64,000 bases of DNA from Antitrichia curtipendula (Eukaryota; Streptophyta; Bryopsida; Hypnales; Leucodontaceae). The translations under genes and the position numbers were made by a program. The notes beneath the pieces were generated by a model. The model searched no databases and was not told the origin of the DNA. It saw only the letters and a program-made list of their open reading frames with translations. Positions 33,084 through 62,800 of this stretch are shown piece by piece. Location of the stretch: positions 27,339,567-27,403,566 of the forward strand of contig OX579636.1 in NCBI GenBank assembly GCA_951230915.1, written 5' to 3'. Within the stretch, counting starts at the first letter, position 1, and each line of letters begins with the position of its first letter.

Positions 33084-36000
33084 CTATGAGGGTCTGCGTT
33101 CGGCGGCCATACTCACACTGTTCACCATCACCAGCTTCTCCCCATACATCGATTGCAATTTGTCGTACACGAATTGCGTTCTCAGCGAGACACCTTCCAT
33201 AATGATAACATCATTGCCCACATATCCTATCTCCAAAATCCCTGGCACTACCATTGTGATGCCTAATGTTATCAAACCCCAGTTCCGCGGCAAATACATT
33301 TGTACCAATCTCTTCAACTCCGTTGGTGTCCTCTCAAACTTGTCTTGCGCTCGAGGCATCACTTCTGTACTCCAAGAGTCTTGAAATATAACATATAAGT
33401 CATCCGTACCGCTAGGAAGGTTTTTCATATACCCACTCTCTTTGGGATAATTCATGATGATGACAATGCCACCAACGGGTTGTACACCACGGCGTCGTTG
33501 CTCGCCATGACGTAGATCATTCACGTATGAGGATACGGTTTCTACTTGAAATATCCAAGAACCTTGGAGCACGTGGCAGCCCTCTGGCAACGCCATCCTC
33601 GACTCCATCGCTTCGTCAAAGCATACGCCTGGCGGAAACAAAAACACAGCATTCCAACGAAAAATGCAAGACATCCAGTTCTTGAGTTGCTGCATAACCT
33701 TGTTGTAATCCTCCTTCGACCAAGGTATGTCCGCCCCTTGCGAACCTCCACGTCTACAATCAAAAATCCATAAACATGGTTTGCCAAGTTCAATGTACTC
33801 GTCCTCAAAGAACCCTTCTCTACATCTCACGTGAAATGAGGCTTCACGTTCTTCATGTTGCACTACTGAGATTGCAACTTGCCAATTCCAACGAGCATTG
33901 GATACATCCTCCACGTCTCGACCATATCCCGCATAACCTCTGCGACCCGCTCGGATATCCACAAAGTGTTGTCTAACAAAAGCTGGGACGACATTCTCCA
34001 AACTGCTCAGCATTTGAACCATCGTCACTGCAGGAAAACACCACGAGGTCTTTGTGTCATTATCCAATGTCCTCCCCATCAAGATGAACTACCTTCCTTC
34101 TGAATCTCCATACTTGCTTGCGTTGATGGAGAAGAAATCATCCATGGATGATGGATTTTCATCCCTTGCTTCTACCATAAGAAACCGAATTTGGTTTCTG
34201 ATGGCATCTTTCCGCTGTACTCGATCCACCGCATACGCTATTGTACCTTTGGAGGGGTTCGCAAAAGCAGCATCATTGAAATAGTATCGCAGCGAAGGAC
34301 GCTTTCCATTCACCACATCCTTTGCAGACATCTCTTTCACCACACGTACATAGTTCGCCGTAGAGATACTGTTCAATGGCCTCCACCACGTCTTCTCCAT
34401 CCTCTTCCACTTCGAGTTTCCATCCACTGTGACATCAAGATTTTGATCTCCAGCCATCTTCTTCCATTTAGTTTCTGCCTTCTTGCTGAAAAATAGTTTT
34501 CCGTCCTCATAATCTTTGCACACCCGCAATATAGCCTTATAGGACTCCTCGTCTTCATGCCAAGCATGGCGTGTATAGTCCACCATCTTCCTTGACAACT
34601 CCCCCAATGATACATGCTTTGATAAGCTTTGACTTAAATGTAATGCACTCGCTGCCATTGCCAACGCTTTTGCTCTGTATGCATCGTCAGCTCGAGTAGC
34701 CACACTTGGACTTCCACATGCTTTCCATATGTCGCACAATTTGATGAGATTTTTGTAATGCGTTGTGAAAAATTTCCTGTCAAACTCCTTTGCATTAATT
34801 TTGACCGACGCTTCGATATAAAACTGTGGATTGTTGTACACCACAAACTTTGCTTTCCGGCTCACAAACTGCGCATGGTACTCTTCATTGGATAAATGTC
34901 CCTTTTCCTTCTCCCGTTCAGCTCGTTTACAAGCACCAACAATATGTTGGCCATCTACTGGCTCCCACACAATATTGCTCTCCAGCCACCTCCTCTGCAA
35001 TGCGGTGCTCAAAAGCGATGGATCCGCTTGGCAATGTTTCAAATACACAGCTTCAAATTCACGTGCAGTCCTTTCTTGGCTAAACGGTACCTCCGTCACC
35101 TCCGTCACCTCCGTCTCGCCTTCGTCATTGATACTGTCATAGCGACATGCAATGGGACGAAGGGTAATCGCACTTACTCCATCAACTTCGGATCCCTTGA
35201 GGCGCTCGTACATTTCATTTACACGCCAATCCATGAGCACCCTGTGGTTTGTCTCTGCGTTAGCCACATCGCGGATGCTATTGATCCTCGCATCAAAAAT
35301 CAGACTTTGTCCCCATATATATCCTGCTCTGTACTCGGTCTCAGTAGGAAAAACAACAGATGCTTTCGTAATGCTCTTTGGCAATACTCTTCTAGGCTCT
35401 TGTTTTGGTTCACCTTCAGAGGAATCATCATCAATAACATCATTTTCGCCATCATTTCTTTGTGGAGGACGACTTTGTAAGGCTGCTCTTCGACGATGTA
35501 TCTGTGCTGCTGTTCGCTTTTTGGCGCCTTGCTTTTCTGCAGCATCCATTGCACGAGTGCGACGCCGTCCTTGGTTTTCTGCGACGTTTTCCACTGCAGA
35601 AGCATGCTGCACATCATCCCCACCATGTTGTCTACTAGCACCACGTCCTCCACCAGCAACACGTCCTCCACCAGCACCGCGTCCCCTTGCAGCACTCCGT
35701 CCGGCACGATTGGCAATCCTAGCAGTATCTACGTTGGCCACTACAACACGTGATCTGTAAACTCTTGCACCTGAGCCAACTCTTTGTGGTCTTGATCTTG
35801 ATCCTGATCCAACTTCCGTGATTGTGGTTGGAGCTCCTTCTTCTCCTTCACTTGGAAGCTCTGGAAAAATCGGGAGTTCGCTCACTACAAGATTTTGAGT
35901 TCCCTCCCCCCTTGATTGCAATGATTCTTCTACAACTGAAGACTCCACTACTGGTGGCCTCACTGCTGCGATCGCTTGCACTTGTACCTCTTCGGTATCA

Positions 36001-36698
36001 CTTGTAGGTTGAACAACAACATCGGTTGCTGCAGATTGAAGGCATTGACGCTGTGCCCTCGGTCCACCAGAATTAACCCCCTCATTTGCATGCATTCCTA
36101 ATCCCCTTTCAACAGCAACTCGCTTGCGGTTCCATTCATCCGGTGGAACCCAATTTGGATTAACTGGCGTAGCAAAATTCCAATATGCTTCATTCAAGTC
36201 CTCTGGATCTCTTGGTGCAGGCCGCTCTTGCACAACACCTGGGTTCATCCTTTCTAATTCTTCACGGCTTAGAATCTCCCGGTATCGATGACGCAATGCT
36301 CGCACTTGTTCAGAGGTCATCCCCATGAATTTTTGAACTGCTCCCTCTCGTTTAACCTGCAATTCATGAGGCACTTTCTTCCAATCTTTTGCCACACTCT
36401 TCAAGCTACGCATTGGAGTAAGAACTAAAAGAAGTTGTGGTGGAATCGGAGCCATCATCAATATCTTCTTCAGTTTATACTTCTCAAGTGTTGTTTCTGT
36501 TGTGGTCACCGACACTGTCAGTCCTCCGTCAGTGGTTCTCGTGAGGCCCTCAATGACTCCATATGAGGACGCCAATGCAGACTCATAACGCCCCTGCCCA
36601 ATTGGAAAATCTGTGATCCACAAAGAAGATCTGTCGTTGTCGTTTACTACGATCCACCATCCATGCTCCAACCACTTCAAGTGCATCTTCGGTGCCAT
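33084..36698 (-). pseudogene. Decayed ParB-like plus DNA methyltransferase-like gene
   Basis: One frame runs from ATG 36698 (MAPKMHLKWLEHGWW, after an acceptor-like TTTTCAG) to 33084, broken only by TAG at 34091-34089 (869 codons, then about 335). In order: a basic/RG-rich disordered part (residues about 330-360), a ParB-like domain (about 495-640) with EMYERLKGSEVDG, ITLRPI and VDGQHIVGACK, a helical middle, and after the stop a methyltransferase-like part. The last has a motif-IV-like CLWIFDCRRGG, a hydrophobic strand plus FLFPPG, a motif-X-like RTPTELKRLVQMYLP and a degraded motif I (GLITLG). DPPY and FxGxG are both lost, so catalysis is unlikely. It is a distant relative of the 13-exon gene at 48-55 kb, yet has no introns over 3.6 kb. 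GTAGTT at the stop could be a donor, but no sensible acceptor fits the frame. Confidence 0.6.
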
Positions 36699-37075
36699 AA
36701 TGCCCTGAAAATGAAAGTTTAACAACACCTTAGCATCCATTGATGTTTTCAAAAAAATTTAAATGCATTAGAATAAATTAGAATAAATAATTTCAACTGT
36801 ATCAAATTTGAAAAACTCACTATTATTATCGTGAATTTCCATAAACTCATTCATTAAGACAAATGAATATTCTTTGCATGGTACTAATTGTAATTCTCCA
36901 ATAACACTTGTTCTATGCATGACAATGAATATCACAATTGCTCTAGCAAATCCACTTCACTTTCAAACCTACAAAACCCAATTTGATGGGCATATGAGAA
37001 CCTCATATATCTCTTCTCAATAGAACATTGCATGTATGATTTCATCATTACCTTCATATGTTGTTCCTTGCTCTA
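36699..37075. other. Upstream region of the ParB-methyltransferase-like relic
   Basis: AT-rich; may hold a 5' exon or promoter of the minus-strand relic, since its ATG is preceded by a 3' splice-like TTTTCAG. Nothing definite seen. Confidence 0.35.
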
Positions 37076-47589: not shown

Positions 47590-47763
47590 TCCTGAAATGC
47601 ACACCGCTTGTACATCGAGAAGTACAAAATGTACCTGTAGAGCGAGAAACTTAGTAGTGTGAGCAGAGAGTGGAGAGCGGAGAGCGGAGAGCGAAGTTTG
47701 CAAAGCAGAGAATCAAATTTTTGTAATCAATTTTGACCAAAAAAAGTGCCTATTACCGTGGAA
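47590..47763 (+). repeat. Left terminal inverted repeat
   Basis: Contains TCCTGAAATG, the GAGCGGAGAGC minisatellite and CCTATTACCGTGGAA in that order. The same order occurs on the complementary strand at 59840-59599. Confidence 0.6.
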
Positions 47764-48193
47764 GCTGGAGTTATTTTAAGCCAAATTTGTTGAAAATGTA
47801 CTCCAATTCTGTGGAATTTCAAAAAATATTTGCCGAGATTTTTGGAAAGGTACTCCAATACCATGGATTTTCAAAAAATATTTGTCAAGATTTTGGAAAT
47901 GCCCCCCCATTTTGTGGAATTCTCACATCTAATTAAATTTAGTAACAAATAAAACCTTAAAGGCATGGAACACTGAATTTTTAATGAATTTTTTTGTAAA
48001 ATTGCTTTTCTATAGTGTAAAAATGCAATTAGGGCTGACGTCATCAAAAGAAGTTTACAATCAAACAAAAACCCAAGAAAAAGTACAAGGGGACTTGTAA
48101 GGATGCATGTAAATATAACTAAAATCCAACTCATATAAAATCCAAATCAATATAAAGCATAGGAATTTAGGTCACTTAATCCCAAAAGCCTCA

Positions 48194-51100
48194 TCAACGG
48201 CTAGAACTACTACTATCCTCGCTCTGCTTAGCCTCTAGATCTATGTAATCCAAGACACGCTTATCAAAACTGCGTGCACGAGGAGGGGATGGTGATAGTG
48301 CTTCCGCAAATTGATGCGCAATCCCACTAGCATATGAAGGGAGCTCAAATGCCTTAGGAGGACTTGCAAACATGTCCGTAGTGAGGACATGAATCGGACT
48401 CTCCCTTGGAACTCTGAACAGTCAAGAAAAATAAACAAATAAGCAGAAAGAAGAAACAAAGAACGGAGAAGAAGAAACTGTAAACAAACAAAGAAAAATG
48501 CAAAAAACAAACTTACGCATAGAGGAAATCAAAGTTGCGCTTTGCCATCTTTTGAGGAGGTGGAGCAAAAACGGACCCTCGCGGTCAGGCAATCTGACGA
48601 GAAGTAGTCTCTGGAATAGGGTCTTGCATGGGGAGGAGGATGGCGTCGAAGATGTCCAAATCCGCCTCAAGAGCCACAATATGGCGTTGAAGTGCACGGC
48701 ATGCAATAATGGAACCACCTAAAACATTTAGAACCAAATTGTGAGAAGTTGTAATACAAAAAAATAAAGTAGTGGGAAGAGGAAGATTGGAAATCAAAGA
48801 GGTTGAAAACAAACCTAGACCACATTGCCAATCCATCACAATGTCATCCTTGTCGGTGAGGGCAGAAAAAAGGATGGAATAAAACTCGTGACGTTTCTCA
48901 CGAGCACCTCTCCAGGGCACGCCATCGTCCCTCATAGCCTGATTCTTTTCATCTGTGAAACTGTTGAGCCAACCATCCCTCTGGAGGTTGTAACCCATCT
49001 TATCAAAAGTTGTATTCCGTACCTTAAGAATGGAGTTAACCCGAACTAACACTTTGATGAAGAACTTGCGAGTCTGAAAAGATGAACATAAATGTGTTAG
49101 TATCCATAAATCCACAAAACTCAACTGAATTTGAGGTAGAGTAGAGGGAAAAAAACTTACTACTCCAGTAGGAACCATGGGCGACTGAAGGTCCAGGTCA
49201 TTCATGCCAAACCAATCTTCAGCCACGTAGAAGTTCATAGTGTGTGCCCAATTGTGGATATCCCTTGACATATCAGGATCAACGGCATGACTGAAGACAA
49301 GAATGCCGTTGTCATGGAGGTTGGCATCTGCAAAGGCAAACAAAACCTCAAAATATGAAGTAGACCGCCTGTTCCAAGTTGGAACATCATCGAAGCAGGT
49401 AGAGATCCGTGGCACACACAAGTTCTCGGGCACATTTGCAAAAAGAAGATCAATGCCCGTGTGAACCTTTTCCTTGGCATTGGATCGAGTACGACCTGCT
49501 CCAACCTACACAGAGAAACCGTTGTAAAAATTTAAAGAAGTAAGAGAAATTGAATCTTAGAATTAAGAATGAATGCAATGGAAAGAGAAATTGTATATAA
49601 ACCTTAGTTAGGAACTCTTGAATGCGGGTGTAGGCTGAATGGCGAATCCCGTTCTTCATAAGGTGCTCAATGACATCCACCATGTCCACATTCTCAATCA
49701 AGGTGAGCGTAGAGGGCTTCTCTGAGGAAGTGGCTGAAGTATCTGGTGCAACTGCCTTCCGCTTTCGCGGCTCAGAGGGGATGGTGATGTCGCTTTGAGA
49801 AGGAGCGAGGGCCAGGTTGGCAGGAGCAATGGAAGGGGTGAAGGATGGAGCAGAGGAGGGAGCAGCGGAGGGACTTCCAGCGATTGCAGTGTCGGGGGCA
49901 GAAGGAGGTGCTGAAGCCTTGGAAGCAGAGCGAAGGGACCTACGGGATTGAGAAGGCTGGGTACTTGCGGCTGTGCCAACTAACTTGCCCTTTCTGCCTT
50001 TGGACACGTTTACTGGCTTGGCCGCCTTCTCCTTCCCTTTCTCCGTCGTCTCCGTTGATAGAGGCTCCAAGTCAAAAGGATGATCAAGCACCGGAGTTGT
50101 AGCAATCAATGAAGAATGAAGTGCCACCTCAGAGAGGGGGATAAAACCTCTGGAACAATCGATATACCAACCACAAGCCTTAAGGTGGGGATCTAGGTAC
50201 TTGGCAACCTGTGTCTCCGTATACATGAATTGGGTAGACTCCAAATTCACCCAGTCTTCCAAATAAGGTGGTAGAAACGATGTAGAAATAGCTTGCTTGG
50301 GAACAAGCTCTTGGAAAATGTACCTAAAATACAAGGCAATGATTAGTAAGCGAAGGGTACAAAGAGGATAAGAATAGTAAAGAGAAGGTGTGAGATGGAT
50401 GCAAACCTGTAAATCACACGTTGTACAATCTGGCGACCACCAAACTCATTTAGGTTAGAGGCTTTGAAGAATCTTGGATCTGCATTGTCGTCAAAGAATT
50501 GCTCGAAGGCCGTGTCCAACAGAAAGATCCTCCAGCGGTCAACAAACTCCGCAGGTCGTAATACACCCACGGAGACATCCCAATGAATGGATCGAGCAAA
50601 GCTCGACTCCATGGAAGCAAACTCCTCCACCACAGCATGCTCTAGCTGCATTACCACAAGTAGAAAGTAAGAATCCCAAAGAATGGTACAAAACAAATTT
50701 AAAAAGGAAAGAGTAGTTAGAAAATAGACCTGAGCCCAGAAAGACGCTTTGTTTAGCCAAATGTCAAGAACCTTCTCCTTAAGAGGCACTATGGAGGGGA
50801 ACTTGTTACCGCCACGGATAGTAGGGGATGAATTCCACCACCGGAGCCAGGCCGTCTTGAAGCGAGGTTGGACGTTAGCTGTGGCAATCTTATGGAGCTT
50901 TTCAATTGTCATGTCGGAGACAGTGTTGGTGGAGAAGTGCCGATCAATCTGGAGACAAGATGCATGGTTAAAAATATGAAAATAAATGTCAAAGTAGAAT
51001 GCAACAAATTTGAATAAGAGAGGAGGGAGAGGATAACCTCATCAAAGAATGTTGGCTCGTGATGCGAGTTTGCTACGGCAACGTACTTCTCAAAGCTCTT

Positions 51101-54100
51101 TGTACGAATTGACTTTCTAGCCTTCTCTTCAGCTGAGGTCATGGCCTTCCAAATACCCACAGCAGTCCTCTGATTCACTGGTGTTGCATCCTTGTAAGCT
51201 AGAGCAGCAACATCCGCAGCAGCCGAGATTTCCCTCTGGTGAGTAGAAATGTTAGCCCATGCAAATTGCAAGAGTGACAACCAATAAGAAGAGCAAATAG
51301 ACGAAGGATTACCTTGTAGAGGAAGGAAACGAAGACGTCCATTGTAAGAGGATACCATGTGGGAACCTTCGACTTGGCGGTAGCACATGCCTGGTAATCG
51401 TCCTTGGAAATCAAGTCCGTAAATGCCTCTAAGGGCAAGGCACCAAAGGTGCGGATGCGAAGGAGTTTTGCTGGCACGCTAGACTTGACGTGGTCGTTCT
51501 CAGTTGACCTATGCAAAAAATTGGCAAGTGTAAAACAAACAGAAGTTGAAGGTGACAAAATCATGAAGAAACCAAAAAAGAGGGCAGAACTTACCAATTA
51601 ACATCATTCATGGCGTTCATAAGAACACCACTGTTCTTTCGCGCATCCAAGGCAATGCAGTGTGGAGAAATATGCCAGGACTCCTCCATAGGATGGAACT
51701 TGTTAATATGGCGGTACCAAGCCGTGAGACGATGGTTGCCCTCCCAAACAAAGAGCATCTTGCCAACCATATGAGCAAGGTCATCATCTTGCGCCATGAG
51801 TGAGTCGAATCGCTCACTAGCAGTCTTCCAGAGCGGATTCCACCCAGTGACGATATCCTCGGTGACATCGACAACCTCGTCCTTGTTGTTGTAGATTGAC
51901 ACATAAAGGACACGATCACCGTCACGGTAGGCAGTGACGAATTCATTCTCCAATCGTTGGACATCGACCTCGTTAATTGGGCGCACAAGAGGCAAGGCAT
52001 GCATTTGGCAAAGGGGAATGCAAAGGCGGGACTTATTTGTGGGCCGAATTCGAAGGCGATTAATAACCGCAGTTGAGTCGGCCTTCTGCTGTGCTCGAAG
52101 TTGATTTTCTTCTATGTCCGGATCAGCTTTCTCCTCCGGTTCGGCATAACGCAGTAGAGGAGTTGGAGACTACAACCAATACAAGGTTTATTATTGAGCA
52201 TATCAAATACCAGAACAATTAAATAATCAAATACACAATGTTTATAAATGGAATTTGAGTACAATGTTCTAGATGCAAATGCATATAGAAAGCATAGCAC
52301 GCTATCAAAAGTGGATGTACATCAAAGAGCACTAATAATAAACAATGTGATGGATAGAGATCCATCACTGAACCAATGAGCAAACATGTGCAAAAACTAA
52401 ATGGATATGATTCCAAACCAATTACCTCTTGCCCCCCAGTAGCAATGTTGTTGATCACTACTTCAGATGTTGGCATAGGTGGCTCCTGAGCTAAGACAGC
52501 TTGAGACAAAACAATCTCTAAGGGCTGCGAAACGTCCATCACTCCAGACTCCTACCAAAAGAAGGCATGAATTAGAACAAAGATACACGCTAGTGAAGAA
52601 CTCGGCGGAACCGCGGGGTTCATTAAGAGTGTTTCAAATGGCCTCAAAATGGAAATGAAAAACTAGTATTTTTCATTGAAATGGTAAAACAACTTCAGAA
52701 AAAGGTGAAATTACAAGAAGAAGTTGGAATTTCTGGATAGTCTTTGTAGTCCACTTAGGATTGGTCTACAATAGAACAAATAAGCACAAAACTGTTGAAA
52801 ATGAACAAAAATACGCAAGATAGGGCAGCCCAAAGGAACCTCGCGGAAACGCAGGCTTCTTCAAAAAATAATCAAAATTCATAAATGAATTACAAATGAA
52901 GAAAGGGCACGGCCTGCTAGAACCCTGCGGTTCCGCCGTGTTCCTCCAAATGGTGCCCGAGTCTATTGTGCATACAAATGAAACCCTAAGTGCAAAGAAT
53001 CCTAAACTTTGTTTGCGGTTTAGGGTGGGAAGTAAGCTTGGTTGTCACTATGCGTGGCCAAATTAAACAACCCCGCAGATCCGCGAGGTTCCTCCAATTG
53101 ATGCCTCAACCAACTATGCACATGATTGAACACATGAAACCCTAACTGCAAAGAATTAAAAAATTTCTTGCATTCAAAGAATTTTGCACTATAGCCCCTC
53201 AAAAGCTGTAATGTGGCGCTTGTTAGCAACCAGTAGTGCTCGGCCGATAGTAAGCACGGCCAACAATGGCACTTGTAAGCACCGTGCGGCCTAAAAATTG
53301 TGCGGCCAACAGTGTGCGCGGCTGAATTGGTTGAACCCCGCGGTTCCGCGGGGTTCCCCCAGGTGGTGCCGCACCCTTTTCCTAAAACCCTAGCTGTGAG
53401 TCTTTGCAAAACTGCGCTTGTACAAAATTATAGCATGAAGGACGGCGGCTCAAAAAACACCCGCATGCAAGCTCAACCCGGACCGCACAACACAAATTTA
53501 CAAAACAAAGAAGTTTGGACTAACCTCTAAAGCCGCACGGAAAACATCGCCGCTTGATTCCACAGCAGCGCCACGTTTCTCCCCATCGCTCGCCATTGTT
53601 CTTCGTTCATAAAAAACGCCCTTCTTTGCCACTCGTCTCCCTTCTTCTACGTCGTCTCCCTTCTCTTCTTCTCCTTCCCGTCCATCCACTTCATCCATCT
53701 TCTCATCCTCTGTCTACAAAATAGCCAAAAATAGCAGTTTTTTCTTTAGAAATTTTACCAAAAAATTACTATATTTAGTAAATTTTTCTTCGCCCCATAG
53801 TCCCCCAGGGGAGACGTCGAGACAGTTGGGGAAAATTTTTCTAAAACTAAGGGAAAATAGAGTTGACAGATCATAAGTTTGACCACTTATTTATCCCTTT
53901 GTCACGGTCTCTATCCTAAGTGGCCAAACTCATGATTTGTCAACTCCATTTATTTGACCCAAAATTGACTCTATTGTATTGTGACGGGGGGGCCGTCACA
54001 AGACGACATGTCATGATGTCACGATAGACCACCCTACCTTCATCTCCATGCATAAAATCAAATGGATAACAATTTGACTTCTATAAATAAAATTGAAGAA

Positions 54101-54742
54101 GGAGGACCGATGGGGGGAACCCGGCGGAACCGCGGGGTTTCCTCACCTCGCCCTCCACAACTCCAGTAACCCTAATGAACTCTATGTGTGACTAGTGCAA
54201 AGTCATGCAAAGCCTTAGATTTCAATTGCAGAGCCATGGATAGTACCCGTGGAGCCGCAAACTACAATTGTGAAGCGCATGAGGAATAGAAGCCCATGCG
54301 CAACAAAGGAAACCCGCACATTCATTGAAATTTAAAAAACCAATAATGCCATTGACTCATATAACAATGGAGTTTAACTTACCGTGTTGACAAAGTCCTC
54401 CCTTCTCTCTTCATTTGAATCAATCTGGTTTGAATTGGTACGCTGTTCGCTCTCGGCCATTGCTGGTGAGGGTGAACTTTTGTTCTTTGTTTCTTCCTGG
54501 ATTGGCACAAGATTAAGAACCCGAATCATACACCTTGCCCTCCAAGAACCACCTACTTCCTCCTCAACTGGCTCGCTTAAATCTAAAGGTGTCCCTCGTC
54601 CCTCTATGCTCGATAGCTCCTTCTTTTTCAACTGGTTTCGCCTCTTCTGCTTCGAGTTGGTAAAAGTCGTGCCGCCTCTTCTTTTCTTGCGCTTCCGCAC
54701 TGTATCAATCGTACAGACTATATTGTGGCCTGATTCCTTCAT
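48194..54742 (-). CDS. ParB-like domain fused to beta-class DNA methyltransferase-like domain
   Basis: Thirteen exons, all GT-AG and in phase: 54742-54383, 53713-53525, 52551-52426, 52169-51595, 51508-51313, 51235-51038, 50948-50730, 50645-50407, 50323-49603, 49505-49161, 49073-48815, 48718-48517 and 48413-48194 (1283 codons). An in-frame TGA at 48587-48585 would end the protein at 1186 residues; coherent coding and a spliced last exon follow it. The N-terminus is basic (RKRKKRR, possible nuclear signal). A ParB-like domain (about 280-390) has PLVRPINEVDVQRLE and WEGNHRLTAW. After a helical middle and a Ser/Pro-rich linker comes the methyltransferase fold in beta-class order: motif IV as IDLLFANVPE (965-968, where DPPY is usual), NGILVFSHAV, a motif-X-like EKRHEFYSILFSAL and motif I DIVMDWQCGLGGS (1137-1145) with VALEAD. 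ParB-methyltransferase fusions are known from phages and bacteria. With NVPE for DPPY, catalysis is doubtful. Confidence 0.75.
52598..53357. repeat. Five GC-rich palindromes in intron 2 of the ParB-methyltransferase gene
   Basis: Variants of AACCCCGCGGTTCCGCGGGG occur at 52598-52621, 52835-52859, 52920-52944, 53069-53092 and 53333-53357. The last is a perfect CCCCGCGG..CCGCGGGG palindrome. Three are followed by TTCCTCCAAATGGTGCC-like sequence, so they are copies of a longer unit. They stand out sharply from the AT-rich intron. Confidence 0.75.
54118..54140. repeat. Sixth GC-rich palindrome, in intron 1
   Basis: AACCCGGCGGAACCGCGGGG is the same motif family as the five copies in intron 2, here in the intron between exons 1 and 2. 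I found no copy elsewhere in the window. Confidence 0.7.
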
Positions 54743-55466
54743 GTGTGCGTCTCGCCAACCCTACAATGCCCGCACACCACCCCTGTACTCTCACGACATC
54801 AAACGCCCCTCACAAAAGATGACCCTTCACTAAACTTTTTTTGGCTATATAATGCTACTGCATGCGGTTTAGGGTTTTCCATTGTCCAATAGCCGTACAT
54901 TATAACATCGCCATTAAGAAGATATTAAACCAATTATAAACTAGGCTATTAAACGGTGTCCTCCAAAGAACAATTGGCGTCTGCAAGATTCTTTTCTAGA
55001 TTGACCAGGCTCTTGATTACTCTGTTCCACTATTAATATGGCAACTATTCCAATTGTAGGGCAAGATTGTCTGTCATTGCAGGAAGTTCATTATCTATTT
55101 GTTGCCTCCGCTCTAATTCAAAGAATTGGTGTTCATCAATTCTACCTGACTATTACGGCTGCCTGCTTCAGATGATGCCAATGGCTTTACTAATGACTAC
55201 GCCATCTACAATATTTCTAATTCCTTCTAATTCTTTGTTAGAATTGTAATTATTATGGGATCTATCAATAGTGAATGATCAATTATTCATAGATAATTCA
55301 AAATGCTTAAGCTCCGAGTTGCTCATACGTATTGCCTCTCTTTGCAAACCGTCAATTTCTTCCTCATTGTTGGTCATCAAACTCTCCTTCTATCTATTTG
55401 CTTTCTTGTGGTCCTTCATGGCTTTGCCTTTTGTAGTCTACGCTTAGCTTTTCCTTCTCTTTGTCG
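54743..55466. promoter_or_regulatory. Divergent intergenic promoter region
   Basis: This 724-bp gap separates the start codons of the ParB-methyltransferase gene (minus) and the transposase (plus), so both promoters must lie here unless distal. A TATATAA-like element at 54846-54852 lies about 105 bp from the minus-strand ATG. No second clear TATA was chosen for the plus-strand gene. Confidence 0.5.
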
Positions 55467-58400
55467 ATGGCTTCATCTTCCACTATTTCTGCAATGGCTG
55501 AGATGGCTGAGCTTCGTGCGCATGGCCTTAAAGTCTCCATTCTCGTTCCTATAGGTGAAGATGGATTTGCATCAATCTACGCCCTTCACCTTAGCATCAG
55601 ATTCTCTTTGCAAGTGAATACCATTTGGATTGAACGTGAGATTTTTGATCCTGCTACATCTTTGCTTTCTGTAACCATGCGTGAAAATTCTAGGCTTGCT
55701 GAGAATGGATCAATGGTCTGGGAGCTGGGCGCTGGCAAGTACAGGGTCTATGGGCTCACTGATTCTCAAATAGGGGTATCGAATGAAATCCTTACCCCAC
55801 TCCGATCGTCTACTTACACGTTCAACACCCCTCCGGTAGTGAGAGTTAAGAGTGAGCCTGGTGTGCAGCCAATCATTGATCTATCTGATTCCTCTGATGA
55901 AGATGCACTCACTTGCCCTACTCCTCTTCTAAATCCTATTTGTTTGTCCAAGACTCCCACGTTTGTCACCCCGTCTCCCTCGCGCCCTAAACCTTCAAAT
56001 CCTCAAGTACCCTCTTCATCCAAACCTTCCAATTGCATTGTTCAATGTTTATGTAGACTAGGTTCTATGGCCGGTAGTAAAAACATCCTCAAGAAGTTAG
56101 ATTACGATAGATTGAAAATTGAGGAAGTCAGTTACCTTCCCCCACGTTTTGATGGTACTCAAATGTTTGTCCTTCCTCCGGTTGGAGCCTCTTCTTCTCA
56201 TACCAAAGCCAAATCCATGGAGGGCATGGACAAGCGGTATGATGGCCATGTCTGGACCAAGACTCAAACCACCAACATTAGCAACAACCTTGGTCTTGTG
56301 TTCCGCTCATCAATTTGCGTTGGCCACCTTCAGTGCCAGAATCAAAACTGTGACTACCTTCAACGTGCTCACCGAACCTCCACGGTGAACGATATCGACT
56401 TCCAAGGCTTTACCAAAGATCTCTTTGCCATTGGTGGTCCCCCGCCAACCACCTCCACTCTTGCATGCAGGATTTGCAAGGAGCCACCTATTTGCCTTGA
56501 ACTTTGTAACGCTAAGATCTTCTATGTCCACAGCAAAGACTCTTCTCAGCGAGGTTGCATTCATATCGGCAACCATCGGCACCCTGTCAAGGTTGGTGAT
56601 TGCAGAGATAGTCGCAAGCGCATCGATGCGCTTCTTGAGGAGCACGTTGAGAGGATGCCCCAAGCCACGCATAGCAAAATTGTCCTTGAAGCTAGCAAAG
56701 ACCTTGTAGGTGAGTTCCTCCTTTGCAATGATAATAATGCACATCAACTTCTTTCATTAGAAGAACTAGAGCCCGTCTTTGATCGCTGCAAAGAGTTGAA
56801 TTCTCCTCACCTTCGTAATAAGGTTACGACCTTCAAGTACATGCGTAGATTAGGAGTCATGGATGGCATTGCTAAGCTTAGGGGAGTTAGCACTTGGGCC
56901 TACGTTCAGCGGAATCAGTTCCCAGGCCAAGGTGATGAAGCGGATAAAGTCTTTGTCTTCAAGATGTCCGAGGTTGGACCCGGTAGTGGAGTCAATTTGG
57001 TTTGTCGCATGCAACCAGGCGGAGATCTTGAGCATGCGTGGATCATGTTTGACCATGTCAAGCGCGTCTCCAAATGGACCACCATGGCCTGCCATGTCTA
57101 CGATGGGACGTACCAACGCATCATGACCATTGCTTGTTGTGACTTCCAATCTGAAGACAAAGATGCTCAAATGCTTTTCTGGCATAACCTCAACCATATC
57201 ATGGCTCGGCACGGAATCCCGAAGCCATACTTCAAAGGATTCATGGCGGATAGTGCACAAGCCAACTGGAATGCCTTGCGCATCGTCTATGGCTCCGGAG
57301 ATCCCAAGGTTCCAATCGAAGGGCGTGAGAGGACATGCTACTTCCACTGGACCCAATCCTTGGAGAAGCACACCAAGCTATATATCAAGCACGACTTGCA
57401 AGACCAACACAAGCGTCTTTGCCTCCAGTACCGCGACGCCTCGTCTATGTTGGAGGCAGACACGAGGTACCTTGCTATCAAAGCATGGTGGGCATCATCA
57501 AATTGCACCTCTGAGGATGGACTAAGGCATCTTCAGCTCTGGCTAGCCTGTTGGCACTTCCGCTATCGACAATGGGGTGGCTTCATGGAACTGGTATGTT
57601 TGTTGACTTATCACTTGACGTTTTCATCTTCACTTCTTTCCTAACCTTAACAGTTTCTTATACAACCTTTCTTTTGTGTAGGAGAAAATCATGATGGCCG
57701 AGGAGTTTGCAGAGATGCCTAATTGCAACCTTGCCAAATCCATTCACAACAAATGGCTTCAAGCGTCCGGCAACAAGGGTGGCGATCTCTATGTGGCAAC
57801 TGTAGATGATTATGTTCGAGCATTCCTCCAAGTTGTGGCTTACCATCAATTTCTAAAAGGTGGCGTTGGCGGAGATGGCCCTAGCAAAGAAGAACTCAAG
57901 CTTAGATGCGCTCAACGTCGGGCTCAACGAATTGGCGACCCAATGGTGCTGCAAAAGGTTCTCCTTGACATACCCGGCGGTGACAGATTCTGCACACGCA
58001 ATCCACACCTCGAAGGCGGCGAGGTCTTCGGATCACAAAAGCGCAAACCTGACACTCCTATTGGAGCCGATGAAGATTCTCACCGCCCCGACACAGTCAA
58101 TTTCTCTCGCCCGCATGTTAGTCACAGAAATACAAGATCTCATCCTACACCTCTACCTACAATTGTTGAGGAATCCTCCCCGTCTGTGCAGGAGGTGGCG
58201 CCTCTTTCACCCACTGGATTGGATGTCCGTCGCATTACAACTGTTCAAGAATCTAAAGTTGACGAGAAGTTGTGGCATATTGCTCGCCTTCCTTGTAATT
58301 CCGAAAAGTCTTGTTGGGCTATGCATGCTGTCACTAAGAAGAAATGTACTGCCAAAATCGTCCCCAACGGCAAGAGCACCCCTGCTCCAACCTACTCCGG

Positions 58401-59139
58401 ATTCTGGAACCATTACTCATTCACAAGACCAAGATCCGAGAAGTTTTTCTTCTGCTCGGATGACATTGAGCGTTGTGTGAAGGGCTCACGTCGCAAGTGA
58501 GTGGACAATTTCTCTGCAAACCAGGAGAGACCTCCAATTCCTCCCGTGTGGCCCGTGAAGCTTGGCACTAACCTCACTCGCCCGGAGATCTTGAAGCTTG
58601 AGAATGCCGGCTTCCAATTGCCACAAATAGAGCGCATTACTCCAACACGCCTATTCAACAACTCTGCTCCTCCCCTTGACCTCTCCGGGGTGGATGTTCC
58701 ACCGAATCCTGACTTTTACCCTGTTTCAAGGCAATCTAAGATTACGCGACGCTCCACCCACGTACAATCAGCAAAGCAGATGCAAATGGTCGCATCCGCT
58801 CATGCAATGCAAGGAACCATCTTGAAGGTAACAATGATTCCTCATCCTGGATTTGGGTGTGTTATCAGTCTGCAGTCCAAACCTGCTCCAACACAATCAA
58901 TTTATCAACTTACAGTGAGCTCCCTCCCTAATTGCACTTGCCCGGCCTTCAAAGACATGATTACCAAGTTTGGCCGCAAGCGAAATTTGTTTTTACATTG
59001 TAAGCATTTGTACTTTTTGTTTGTCAAGGTCTCTAAGTTAGATCCAGAAGTGAACTTGTTCATTCATGCCCCAACCTTTAGCTTCAATGAGGTTAAACTC
59101 ATTCTTGAAGGGGGCCTCTTGACACATTCTACCATCTAG
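55467..59139 (+). CDS. MULE-like transposase with C-terminal SWIM finger (late TGA)
   Basis: Exon 1 is 55467-57593 and exon 2 starts at 57682, in phase. The frame gives 981 residues to TGA 58498-58500, then reads on openly in the same frame for 212 more codons. From about residue 275 lies a WRKY/GCM-like zinc-binding region (CVGHLQCQNQNCDYLQRAH, CRICKEPP, HIGNHRHPVKVGD). A transposase core follows at about 535-640 (TTMACHVYDGTYQRIMTIACCD, then GFMADSAQANWNAL, then RTCYFHW), with spaced acidic residues expected of a DDE/RNase-H fold. After the stop, CTCPAFKD ... CKH (58933-59007) is a SWIM zinc finger, CxCx(n)CxH, typical of MULE transposases. GTGAGT overlaps the TGA and could be a donor, but the nearest acceptor would leave a 28-nt intron, too short. 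Losing the SWIM finger probably disables it. Confidence 0.75.
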
Positions 59140-59598
59140 ACTCATTGCCGGCCTAGGATTACTTTATATTCTTATGAATATAGTCATTTGTTGACCTCAT
59201 ATGTACTTGCTATTTACTCCCTTGAGAAACAAAATGTTGTGTTTTAAGATTTTTATTCACCGCAAGTCATTGCATTACAATAATTGCACAATAATTGCAC
59301 CACCATGTATTTCTCACATTTTCTCACTATACATGCTAACCCGTAAACCTTCCAAATGCACCAATCTCTTTGATTTCTTCTTGACTTCATCTTCCACATG
59401 AATTCAATTTTGCGTTTTCCAAGTCTCTAATTAAATCACAAGTTTACGAATTCAGACCTTCATTGTGTTTTAGGCCATCAATTTCTACGGTGATAGGTCA
59501 CAAAAATTAATTATTTAGCATTTCTTGGATCTTAAACTAAATCAAAAGTTTGGAAATTTAGAAATTTTAGGTGCCCATTGATTTTTTTTGCCCTCTAA

Positions 59599-59840
59599 TT
59601 CCACGGTAATAGGTCATAAAATTTTACTGTTTTCAAGAAAATCTTGAATATTCTTTAGAATATTCGCATCCGTCAATAATAAAACCTAAAAATAATAAAA
59701 ATATATATATATATTTTTTTTTTGGCTATTCTTTGCTCTCCGCTCTCTGCTCACCGCTCTCCGCTCTTTGCTCACCGCTCACATAGCAATGTCGTCCCCT
59801 GTAGAGCTTGATTGGTTATAGAACCCGATCCATTTCAGGA
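59599..59840 (-). repeat. Right terminal inverted repeat
   Basis: Read on the minus strand: TCCTGAAATG, then a GTGAGC/GAGCGGAGAGC minisatellite (59782-59730), a poly-A and (AT)n stretch, and CCTATTACCGTGGAA (59613-59599). It is longer than the left copy, mainly through the AT stretch. A weaker second copy of the inner motif lies at about 59485-59499. Confidence 0.6.
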
Positions 59841-62800
59841 CCTCCTACCTTACAGACCCCTATTTAGTCAAATGACATCAATAATAATCCCTGCATTGGA
59901 ACAAAATAGTTTTTTTTTTTAATAATGCACCCCTACTAAGGCCTAGCGAGGATGTCAATCCACACTGATCCAAATCAACTGATGAGAGTGCTTGTTCATG
60001 TTGAAACCCTTCTTCCTCGTGCATCTCATCCGTTCCCAGGTCTCATGCTTAAGTTGTGAGTCAATTAGGGGACTTTGTTCTTGTAAATACCATGGAAGAA
60101 TTGTTAGGCTTTTAGGGGAAGAGAAGTTTCTGTCTTTGAAACAATTTCGTTGGAATAGAATAATAACGTGGATCGAGGACCAGTATTTTAATATTGTTTA
60201 AATCTTTTCGGTAGGAGTTTAATCTCTGAATGCCCGTGGCGTCAAATTCTAGTGTCGAGATCTTTGGGAATTAAATGAGAAGGTAACCTATTTTTTTTTT
60301 AATATCTAACATTTCGTCCAAAGTTATTTTTGAAGTCTGGTTTTAGCATCAAAAAACTTATTTTTAAAATGAAGGACTATGATTTTGTTGTTAAACATTT
60401 CGCGAAATGATACGTTTTGCAATCTTGACTATACGTAGTGTCCAAGGCTCATGGACTTGAGTTTGAAATACAGAAGATTTTGGATGGAAAATCACACTAA
60501 GAAGTCATTAGAAACAATTATGGTAAAGGCTTCGAGAAGCCAATAATCAATTGAGAGTATGCATGTTTGCTTGCTCAGCTCATATTATTTAGGTAACCAT
60601 TTATTTGGATTTGAAGTGGAAAAAGAAAGCCGAAAGAGTTTCATAGTTTCAACATTCTCACGATCAAACATTTTTATCTGTCAATCTTTAAATGATATTT
60701 TTATGTTTTCTTTTTCCATATGATTTTGACCATGTTTAGTTCAAATTTGTATAGTCACAAACTCACAATTAAAAAATAATTAAATTTAACTTTTTAAAAT
60801 GTTGGCTTCTTGTTTAATATATAGCCAATTCCAAGAAACTTAGAACAGGACTTCGGCATTCAGGGATTAAATGCAGTGGACAGTAAAAGAGCACCTCCTT
60901 CACTGTAGAGTGTTGTTACATTTGGTACATTGAAGGACGAAAAACATATTTTTATGTGTCATGATTGGTTTAATAGGGTTGTTGTTTTTATTACTTATAA
61001 GCTTCGTGACTACTTTAATTTTTGGCAGAAAATAACCCCATGAATTCATTCCAACAAAGTATTTGTAGTTATCGCTTATAAACTTATAGCTTATAATGGA
61101 TTTTTTAAATTGATATAAGTACATGTGGATGAAACACCCACTATGGAATTACAATTGAAGAAGGGACTCTATATGAAGGAAAGTTATTTGGACTGAACAT
61201 GATATTGAGGTTTCATGAATGTAAAATTGAAATACTCTTAAAAAATTATTTTGCATTTAAAAGTATGAAAAACTTAAATTTACAAACTTGAATAACAAGT
61301 CTTTACATTGTTGTTTTGAACATTTGAAAGTTATGTAATTTTTGAAAAATTATGATATTGAAAGCAACAATATTTGGCTTTCTATATAGATTGAGAGTAC
61401 AAATGTTTGATGTACGCCAAAAAAATCTACAAAGTAGTTTGTAAGCATTCAATGAATTCCATTTTTTTTAGAAGTTTGATTCAATTAGAAGTCATACATG
61501 TGCGTGAATAATAGGTTCAACGTGGCTTACAAACGCATTTACATTTTAACAATTTTGAGAATGTATAAATGAATTTTGGTTTTTATTTTTATGTTAGTGA
61601 GCCTCATAGTATTTACTGAACTTAAATTTTCAAATCAATATTTACAAAGTAGATTACATAGATCAGAATAATTTCCACATTTTTAATACCCTCTTCATCA
61701 AAAATCATAATCTTTCGATGTCAAAGTATTATGTTTGTGTTTTTTGTATAATTAAAGTGCTGTATAGGTCATGTAGCATAAACTAAGATGTTATAATTTT
61801 TTCCTTGAATATTATCTTAGAATTTGGCTTATTTAATTATTTTTGAGTGAACTCAGAAGAGCTCAAAGGAGGGCGTTGGCCCTCTTCGTGTGAAACCTTG
61901 AAGGACAAAGCGGTACTTTGAATTACAAAAATTGTGAAGATATATTATAAGAAATGAAGTATTGTTCAAGAAAGATAAAATGTACCTATGTTTAATGAGT
62001 GTTTGTAGAGTTTGGTTGATGTAAGAAGGGACTACTTTCATATGTAACATGTTTGTGTATTGGTTCTTTTGATTTGTTTTTGTTGTAGTGACTTTTAAAT
62101 AATGTTTTTGGAGAATAATAATTATTTAGTGCTTGTCACGGATATATCTTTTTTATTACATTCAATGCTTCAATGTACAAGTTATGGCACTTGCAAACCT
62201 AAATGGAGATTGTTGAAAAGTGCACAGAAAACCATTGGAATTGTGAAAAATTAATTAAAATTAAAATTAAATATTCCCTTTGAACTACAAAGATTTTATT
62301 CATTCCATGTACATTAGTGATGAGCTGTTTTTGTACAGTCTTGTCCTGTAGTCAATGTAAAGAAATTGCAAAAAAAGAACTTGCTGATTCTCTTTTTGAA
62401 TGAAGAATTTACAAGTTTTAAGAAGAAAGTGGAACGTGTCTAATTACTGAACAAGAACTATTGCACTACTGTGATTTTCTTTTTTGGAATTTCATTTTTG
62501 ATTTATTCGTATTCTAGTTTAACCAATGAATTCTGAAAGTACATGTACTCTATTACCTCTTCTGTTTAAAAATGATCATTATGTTTGAAAAAATGTCTTG
62601 ATTACGTCACATAATACATTTTAGAAACCAATTTTCCGCTATAAGTTGAGTTCATTGTTTTTCTATCATTCATTAAAATTGTATGACAACTTATTTGAAT
62701 GATAGTTTTAGAATATTGAGAGTTAGTTTTTCTTTGGCATTTTCGAGGACTAGCATTGGTCAATTCATTTTTGAGTGTGAAGTTGCCATTTTGTATGCAT

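What the first reader, a model, noticed from the sequence alone, without database searches (positions are those of the whole stretch)
47590..59840. A 12-kb inverted-repeat element pairing a MULE-like transposase with a ParB-DNA methyltransferase gene
Seen: colinear inverted landmarks at both ends (TCCTGAAATG, a GAGC-rich minisatellite, an exact 15-mer) enclose exactly two divergent genes whose 3' ends face the termini. Known: MULEs have long terminal repeats and SWIM-bearing transposases, and some plant MULEs carry accessory anti-silencing genes. Inference: the ParB-methyltransferase is cargo or an accessory factor of the transposon, perhaps for site recognition or interference with host methylation. 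I know of no described plant transposon with this gene pair.
Basis: partly seen in the sequence, partly recalled or inferred. Interest (0 to 1): 0.92.

Follow-up and report, generated by a model that had tools for sequence, protein, structure and literature searches.

The report
Plant jumping gene with ParB-methyltransferase partner
A 12-kilobase plant jumping gene carries, besides its own transposase, a bacterial-looking gene that joins a DNA-binding ParB-type domain to a DNA-methyltransferase-like domain, together with a cluster of mirror-image DNA sites that the protein may recognise.

The parts
47644..59797 (.). The whole element (12,154 bp)
   Evidence: Ends from 22 paired copies and two empty sites
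47634..47643 (.). Target site duplication, left copy (CCTGTAGAGC)
   Evidence: Identical to the right copy; present once in the empty sites L083 and L084
59798..59807 (.). Target site duplication, right copy (CCTGTAGAGC)
47644..47664 (+). Left terminus (family consensus GGGAAACTTAGTAGTGTGAGC)
   Evidence: read in 22 of 22 paired copies
59777..59797 (-). Right terminus, inverted (family consensus GGACGACACTGCTATGTGAGC)
   Evidence: read in 22 of 22 paired copies; 12 of 21 identical to the left consensus
47658..47713 (+). Subterminal GAGC-rich array, left
   Evidence: Inverted to 59728-59783, 75% complementary
59728..59783 (-). Subterminal GAGC-rich array, right
47749..47763 (-). Inverted 15-mer TTCCACGGTAATAGG
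59599..59613 (+). Inverted 15-mer TTCCACGGTAATAGG, second copy
55467..57593 (+). Transposase exon 1 (709 aa; D546, D595, C624, H627)
   Evidence: 79 database homologues; residues checked in 30 loci of the genome
57682..59139 (+). Transposase exon 2 (catalytic position 728, SWIM-type CxC...CxH); in-frame TGA at 58498-58500, and 728 is K where 23 of 27 aligned loci have E
48194..54460 (-). ParB-methyltransferase gene, 13-exon model with canonical splice sites; coding well supported from exon 4 on, exons 1-3 doubtful; in-frame TGA at 48585-48587
   Evidence: comparison with copy L087
51595..52169 (-). Exon 4: ParB/sulfiredoxin-fold domain with GNHR motif
48517..49505 (-). Exons 10-12: N6/N4-type methyltransferase domain (motif IV D[VI]PE in relatives, NVPE here; motif I DWQCGxG)
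   Evidence: 117 homologues, motif counts; Pfam N6_N4_Mtase and PHROG matches of the deeper relative
54117..54140 (.). Dyad site A
53333..53356 (.). Dyad site B, perfect 11+2+11
53068..53091 (.). Dyad site C
52920..52943 (.). Dyad site D
52836..52859 (.). Dyad site E
52598..52621 (.). Dyad site F

Best explanation
This is a two-gene MULE-type DNA transposon of a land plant. One gene makes the DDE/SWIM-type transposase that moves it (supported by motifs and 10-bp duplications). The divergent gene makes a conserved element-encoded accessory protein: an N-terminal ParB/sulfiredoxin-fold domain, a middle region and a C-terminal DNA-methyltransferase-type domain. Inferred: the ParB part binds a cluster of six dyad-symmetric sites in the region between the two conserved coding parts, loads onto the element's own DNA as bacterial ParB loads at parS, and so brings the methyltransferase-type domain to the element. 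The result would be self-recognition: marking the element with N6-methyladenine or N4-methylcytosine, or, if the altered catalytic motif is inactive, occupying the promoter region. The most likely benefit is escape from host silencing or control of transposase expression. This copy is broken in both genes and can move only with proteins from elsewhere, if at all.
For: Duplications: 13 of 22 exact, 6 of 22 one mismatch, 3 of 22 worse. Empty sites. Linkage: 44 of 63 transposase exons have a divergent ParB exon within 25 kb upstream (18 of 19 same-family, 26 of 44 others), 37 of 63 within 8 kb; for 25 kb 300 shuffles gave mean 0.6, maximum 5; 0 on the same strand upstream, 2 downstream. A family whose transposase is 52% identical keeps the same ParB-middle-methyltransferase order at 24-37% identity. 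ParB fold: pLDDT 86, eleven best VIA rows all ParB, Noc or KorB. Methyltransferase: the deeper relative matches Pfam N6_N4_Mtase at E 7.3e-5 (under the curated cut-off) and phrog_3008 at E 6.9e-7. dN/dS against copy L087: ParB exon 0.11, methyltransferase exons 0.137; transposase exon 1 against five relatives 0.144-0.157. Dyad sites: 92 in 400 Mb at up to 3 mismatches, 0 for the reversed pattern; all 50 that were listed lie within 24 copy spans that total 0.085% of the genome, two of the spans with an assumed far end. The other family has CCTCTCGGTACCGAGAGG instead; of 50 exact places listed, 39 lie in two tandem arrays and 8 of the other 11 lie 1.1-2.3 kb upstream of a ParB exon.
Against: No binding, methylation or expression data exist here. 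Motif IV is D[VI]PE, not the recalled [DNS]PP[YFW], so methyl transfer may be lost. Pfam's ParB profile matched none of 36 ParB homologues at the levels scanned, and Foldseek alone gave E 0.19 at best. The spliced methyltransferase of the closer family did not reach Pfam, and its model, which had to contain two introns, was poor (pLDDT 54.6). The covariation test on the dyad sites did not beat shuffles (score reached in 91 of 500), so compensatory evolution is not shown. That a transposon's sequence is confined to its copies is expected in any case. 19 of 63 transposase exons had no ParB partner found. The selection test of the ParB gene rests on one copy, which itself has stops.
Confidence: 0.6

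Rival explanations
1. Passenger cargo: the ParB-methyltransferase gene was captured once and rides along without serving the element, as in gene-capturing MULEs.
For: MULEs tend to acquire host gene fragments (PMC6446971, abstract start seen). 14 of 23 same-family copies have stops in the ParB exon.
Against: Divergent linkage across deeply diverged families and dN/dS of 0.11-0.14 in the two domains, like the transposase.
Confidence: 0.08
2. The protein is a second transposition factor (for example end pairing, target choice or copy-number control) and the methyltransferase-type domain is a catalytically dead SAM- or DNA-binding module.
For: Motif IV reads D[VI]PE in the family (D in 48 of 56, P in 47 of 59, E in 50 of 59 rows); GAGC-rich arrays at both ends could be its binding sites.
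Against: Motifs I and II are conserved and selection is strong on this domain, which suits but does not require catalysis.
Confidence: 0.25
3. The dyad sites do not bind the ParB domain: they are sites of the transposase or of a host factor, or act as hairpins in the transcript.
For: They lie in 5' introns or the divergent promoter region, where any regulator could bind; a perfect 11-bp-arm hairpin would fold in RNA (inference).
Against: Dyads next to the ParB gene recur with another sequence in another family, as expected if site and ParB protein diverge together.
Confidence: 0.3
4. Two unrelated repeats happen to lie side by side.
For: The locus is a nested-repeat region.
Against: One pair of ends, one duplication, and the same divergent order in 18 of 19 same-family transposase copies.
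Confidence: 0.01

Closest known systems
Sola1-1_Ec32 transposon of the brown alga Ectocarpus, with a 1104-aa ParB-like plus N4/N6 DNA methyltransferase protein (PMC12477816, passages seen); [quoted passage not shown]
   Same: ParB-like domain plus N4/N6-type methyltransferase domain in one protein of about 1,100 aa, transcribed on the strand opposite to the transposase of a large DNA transposon.
   Different: Sola1 rather than a MULE-type transposase; brown alga rather than land plant; no binding sites reported in the passages seen. Homology between the two proteins was not tested because no sequence was held.
VANDAL MULEs of Arabidopsis with VANC anti-silencing proteins (PMC10398659, PMC5735166; abstract starts seen)
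   Same: Plant MULE with a sequence-specific accessory protein; the proposed benefit, anti-silencing, is the same.
   Different: VANC has no ParB or methyltransferase domain (recalled); here the candidate sites are dyads beside the accessory gene.
MuDR/Mu of maize with mudrA and mudrB (recalled)
   Same: Two-gene MULE; DDE/SWIM transposase; duplication of about 9 bp.
   Different: Mu has long, near-identical inverted repeats and an unrelated second gene.
Retrotransposons that acquired cytosine methyltransferases in dinoflagellates and charophytes (PMC5890265, abstract start seen)
   Same: A mobile element that carries its own DNA methyltransferase.
   Different: Retrotransposons; C5-cytosine enzymes; no ParB domain named in what was seen.
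Bacterial and phage ParB-methylase fusions and ParB-parS partition (recalled)
   Same: ParB/sulfiredoxin fold with GxHR-type motif; palindromic sites near the gene.
   Different: Here in a eukaryotic transposon; the sites differ in sequence and length from bacterial parS (16 bp, recalled); motif IV altered.

Membership tests
MULE superfamily | Target site duplication of about 8-11 bp | tested here: met
   10 bp: 13 of 22 exact, 6 of 22 one mismatch, 3 of 22 worse; 8-11 bp entries in the table of PMC6446971 (passages)
MULE superfamily | DDE catalytic residues with CxxH between second D and E (motif recalled) | tested here: met
   In 30 loci: D546 in 30, D595 in 27 (N in 3), C624 in 30, H627 in 29 (Q in 1); E728 in 23 of 27 aligned loci, K in 4 including this copy
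MULE superfamily | SWIM or other zinc finger in the transposase | tested here: met
   CxC in 24 of 24 loci that reach it, third C in 20 of 21, H in 21 of 21; by pattern, not by a Pfam match
MULE superfamily | Match to Pfam MULE or Transposase_mut profiles | tested here: inconclusive
   No Pfam match for this protein; Transposase_mut in 2 of 58 members, best E 0.034, among 22 other families at similar chance-like E-values
Mu-type subgroup with long terminal inverted repeats | Long, near-identical inverted repeats | tested here: not met
   12 of 21 terminal bases identical, then GAGC arrays at 75%; PMC6446971 lists several MULE groups with none
ParB-methyltransferase transposon accessory proteins | ParB-like fold | tested here: met
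ParB-methyltransferase transposon accessory proteins | N6/N4-type DNA methyltransferase domain | tested here: met
   Relative L088: PF01555 E 7.3e-5, 23.3 bits, under the curated cut-off of 26.7; phrog_3008 E 6.9e-7. Its counterpart here aligns at about 24% but has no Pfam match of its own; PF01555 in 1 of 51 intron-containing homologues at E 0.17
ParB-methyltransferase transposon accessory proteins | Gene inside a DNA transposon, opposite to the transposase | tested here: met
Active N6/N4 methyltransferases | [DNS]PP[YFW] catalytic motif (recalled) | tested here: not met
   D[VI]PE in homologues, ADIPED in the deeper family, NVPE in this copy
ParB-parS systems | Dyad sites bound by the ParB protein | not testable with these tools
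   Sites present and clustered; binding unknown
VANC-type anti-silencing proteins | Loss of DNA methylation on copies that carry the motif | not testable with these tools
   No methylation data held

The most novel reading that the evidence does not exclude
A plant transposon superfamily carries its own ParB/parS-like self-recognition system. Each family encodes a ParB-methyltransferase that loads at family-specific palindromes beside its own promoter and chemically or physically marks that family's DNA. Protein and palindrome co-diverge, and this addressing system has helped the elements reach more than a thousand candidate places (first-look counts) in one plant genome.
Probability: 0.35. 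Interest if true: 0.92.

Novelty: new variant of a known kind. Interest (0 to 1): 0.76.

Why it matters
Plants mark transposons mainly with 5-methylcytosine (recalled). An abundant plant transposon that encodes a prokaryote-type ParB plus N6/N4 methyltransferase-type protein, with candidate recognition sites in the same element, makes two open questions testable: whether transposons write their own non-5mC marks, and how an accessory protein tells its own element from many relatives. It also extends an accessory class known from algal transposons to land plants and to a MULE-type transposase.

Full report
Observation. The window lies at G000:C4:27339567-27403566 of an unnamed 400-Mb genome. 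An LRR receptor-kinase-like gene and a thaumatin-like ORF (read by eye; no Pfam match) point to a land plant; the species is not identified. Searching the genome with the left end gave many copies, most of which begin at query positions 43-57, while positions 1-54 also match a different set of places. The right end behaves alike: most copies stop at about position 318, and 319-381 match other places. The two outer pieces fall together at shared loci with a 10-bp overlap. Joining the flanks gives 95% and 93% matches to two uninterrupted loci. So the element is 47644-59797 with the duplication CCTGTAGAGC.

Copies. Of 22 copies with both ends, 13 have exact 10-bp duplications, 6 have one mismatch and 3 do not fit (one of the three, C3:26.8, is exact if the junction is shifted by one base). 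The consensus ends are GGGAAACTTAGTAGTGTGAGC and GGACGACACTGCTATGTGAGC, 12 of 21 alike, followed by GAGC-rich arrays.

Transposase. Exons 55467-57593 and 57682-59139 give a reading frame with one in-frame TGA at 58498. 79 database proteins are related, none with a functional name. VYDxTY (D546), FMADS (D595), CxFH (C624, H627), CNLAE (E728) and a CxC...CxH finger match the MULE plan (motif knowledge recalled; residues). Of 30 loci, D546 is kept in 30, D595 in 27, C624 in 30 and H627 in 29. This copy has K at 728, where 23 of 27 aligned loci have E. In the alignments, 5 of 30 loci had no stop; one of the five (L011) has a TGA and another (L020) lacks the H. The superfamily is large: 1803 first-look candidates, 63 scored.

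Linkage. Of 63 scored transposase exons, 44 have a divergent ParB exon within 25 kb upstream and 37 within 8 kb. Random placement gives 0.6 and 0.2 on average (maximum 5 and 2 in 300 shuffles); no ParB lies upstream on the same strand and 2 lie downstream. 18 of 19 same-family copies are linked; 26 of 44 diverged ones are. The 19 misses may include partners outside the 298 ParB places used (first-look candidates 1248 and 1178) and truncated copies; this was not followed up except for one (L085, no ParB in 4 kb).

Selection. This copy against copy L087, 85% identical overall: dN/dS 0.11 (ParB exon), 0.18 (exons 5-8), 0.40 (exon 9), 0.137 (methyltransferase), 0.41 (exon 13), 0.252 in all, and 0.835 for exons 1-3, which may not be coding. 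Transposase exon 1 gives 0.144-0.157 against five relatives and 0.495 against the near-identical L010. Aligned noncoding identity is 0.797. This argues against passive cargo, but it is one ParB pair, and L087 itself has two internal stops and a one-base gap.

Dyad sites. Six sites like GAACCCCGCGGWWCCGCGGGGTTC lie at 52598-54140 and none elsewhere in the window. Together they keep 53 of 66 dyad pairs; L087 keeps 55 of 66 at the corresponding six sites; random 24-mers of the same stretch average 2.8 of 11. Genome-wide there are 92 sites with up to 3 mismatches and none for the reversed pattern. The tool listed 50 of the 92; all 50 lie in spans of this family, spread over 23 of 24 spans, two of which have an assumed far end. 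In the related subfamily three of the sites carry three different perfect dyads (for example in the copy at C8:14.95M). The formal covariation test did not exceed shuffles (91 of 500 as high), although pairing was 88% against 32-56% in slid controls. In the deeper family the corresponding region has CCTCTCGGTACCGAGAGG: 990 sites genome-wide at up to 2 mismatches against 4 for the control. Of the 50 places listed there, 39 lie in two tandem arrays and 8 of the other 11 lie 1.1-2.3 kb upstream of a ParB exon. The array unit of about 138 bp shares only about 20 bp with the element.

Mechanism. Shown: mobile element, two genes, conserved pair, ParB-like fold, methyltransferase-type domain, dyad clusters. 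Inferred: ParB binds the dyads; the methyltransferase domain acts on, or merely covers, the element; the benefit is escape from silencing or control of expression. The altered motif IV leaves catalysis open.

Prior work. [quoted passage not shown] The idea is therefore in print for algae. What is added here is a MULE-type transposase, a land-plant host, linkage statistics, a selection test, and candidate binding sites that differ between families.

Noticed in passing
window 34092-36758 (-) and 47590-47643 / 59798-59860: A long ORF with a ParB-like 'VDGQHIVGACK' stretch (read by eye; only weak DUF matches in Pfam) belongs to another large repeat family (276 first-look candidates, 51 scored). 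Copies of the flanking repeat into which the MULE inserted lie about 8.5-9.4 kb upstream of copies of this gene on C7, C8 and C6 (coordinates compared by eye), so the MULE seems nested in that second large element.
   Followed up: partly
G000:C6:5441336-5445769 (L089 covers 5441300-5441760): A tandem array of about 138-bp units, each read one with a palindrome centred on CCTCTCGGTACCGAGAGG, the same core as the dyad site of the second transposon family but in otherwise unrelated sequence; L034 also has three such stretches about 130 bp apart.
   Followed up: partly
window 58498-58500 and 48585-48587: Each gene model of this copy has exactly one in-frame stop, both TGA, in an otherwise open spliced frame, which would suit a young, recently lost copy.
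   Followed up: partly
P0053 and P0093: A transposase and a ParB homologue from public assemblies are both listed on a longest contig of 674,632 bp, suggesting that the two genes also occur together in another organism.
   Followed up: no
window 53855-53951: An inverted repeat of 35-nt arms with a 27-nt loop (89%) lies between the two genes, distinct from the dyad sites.
   Followed up: no
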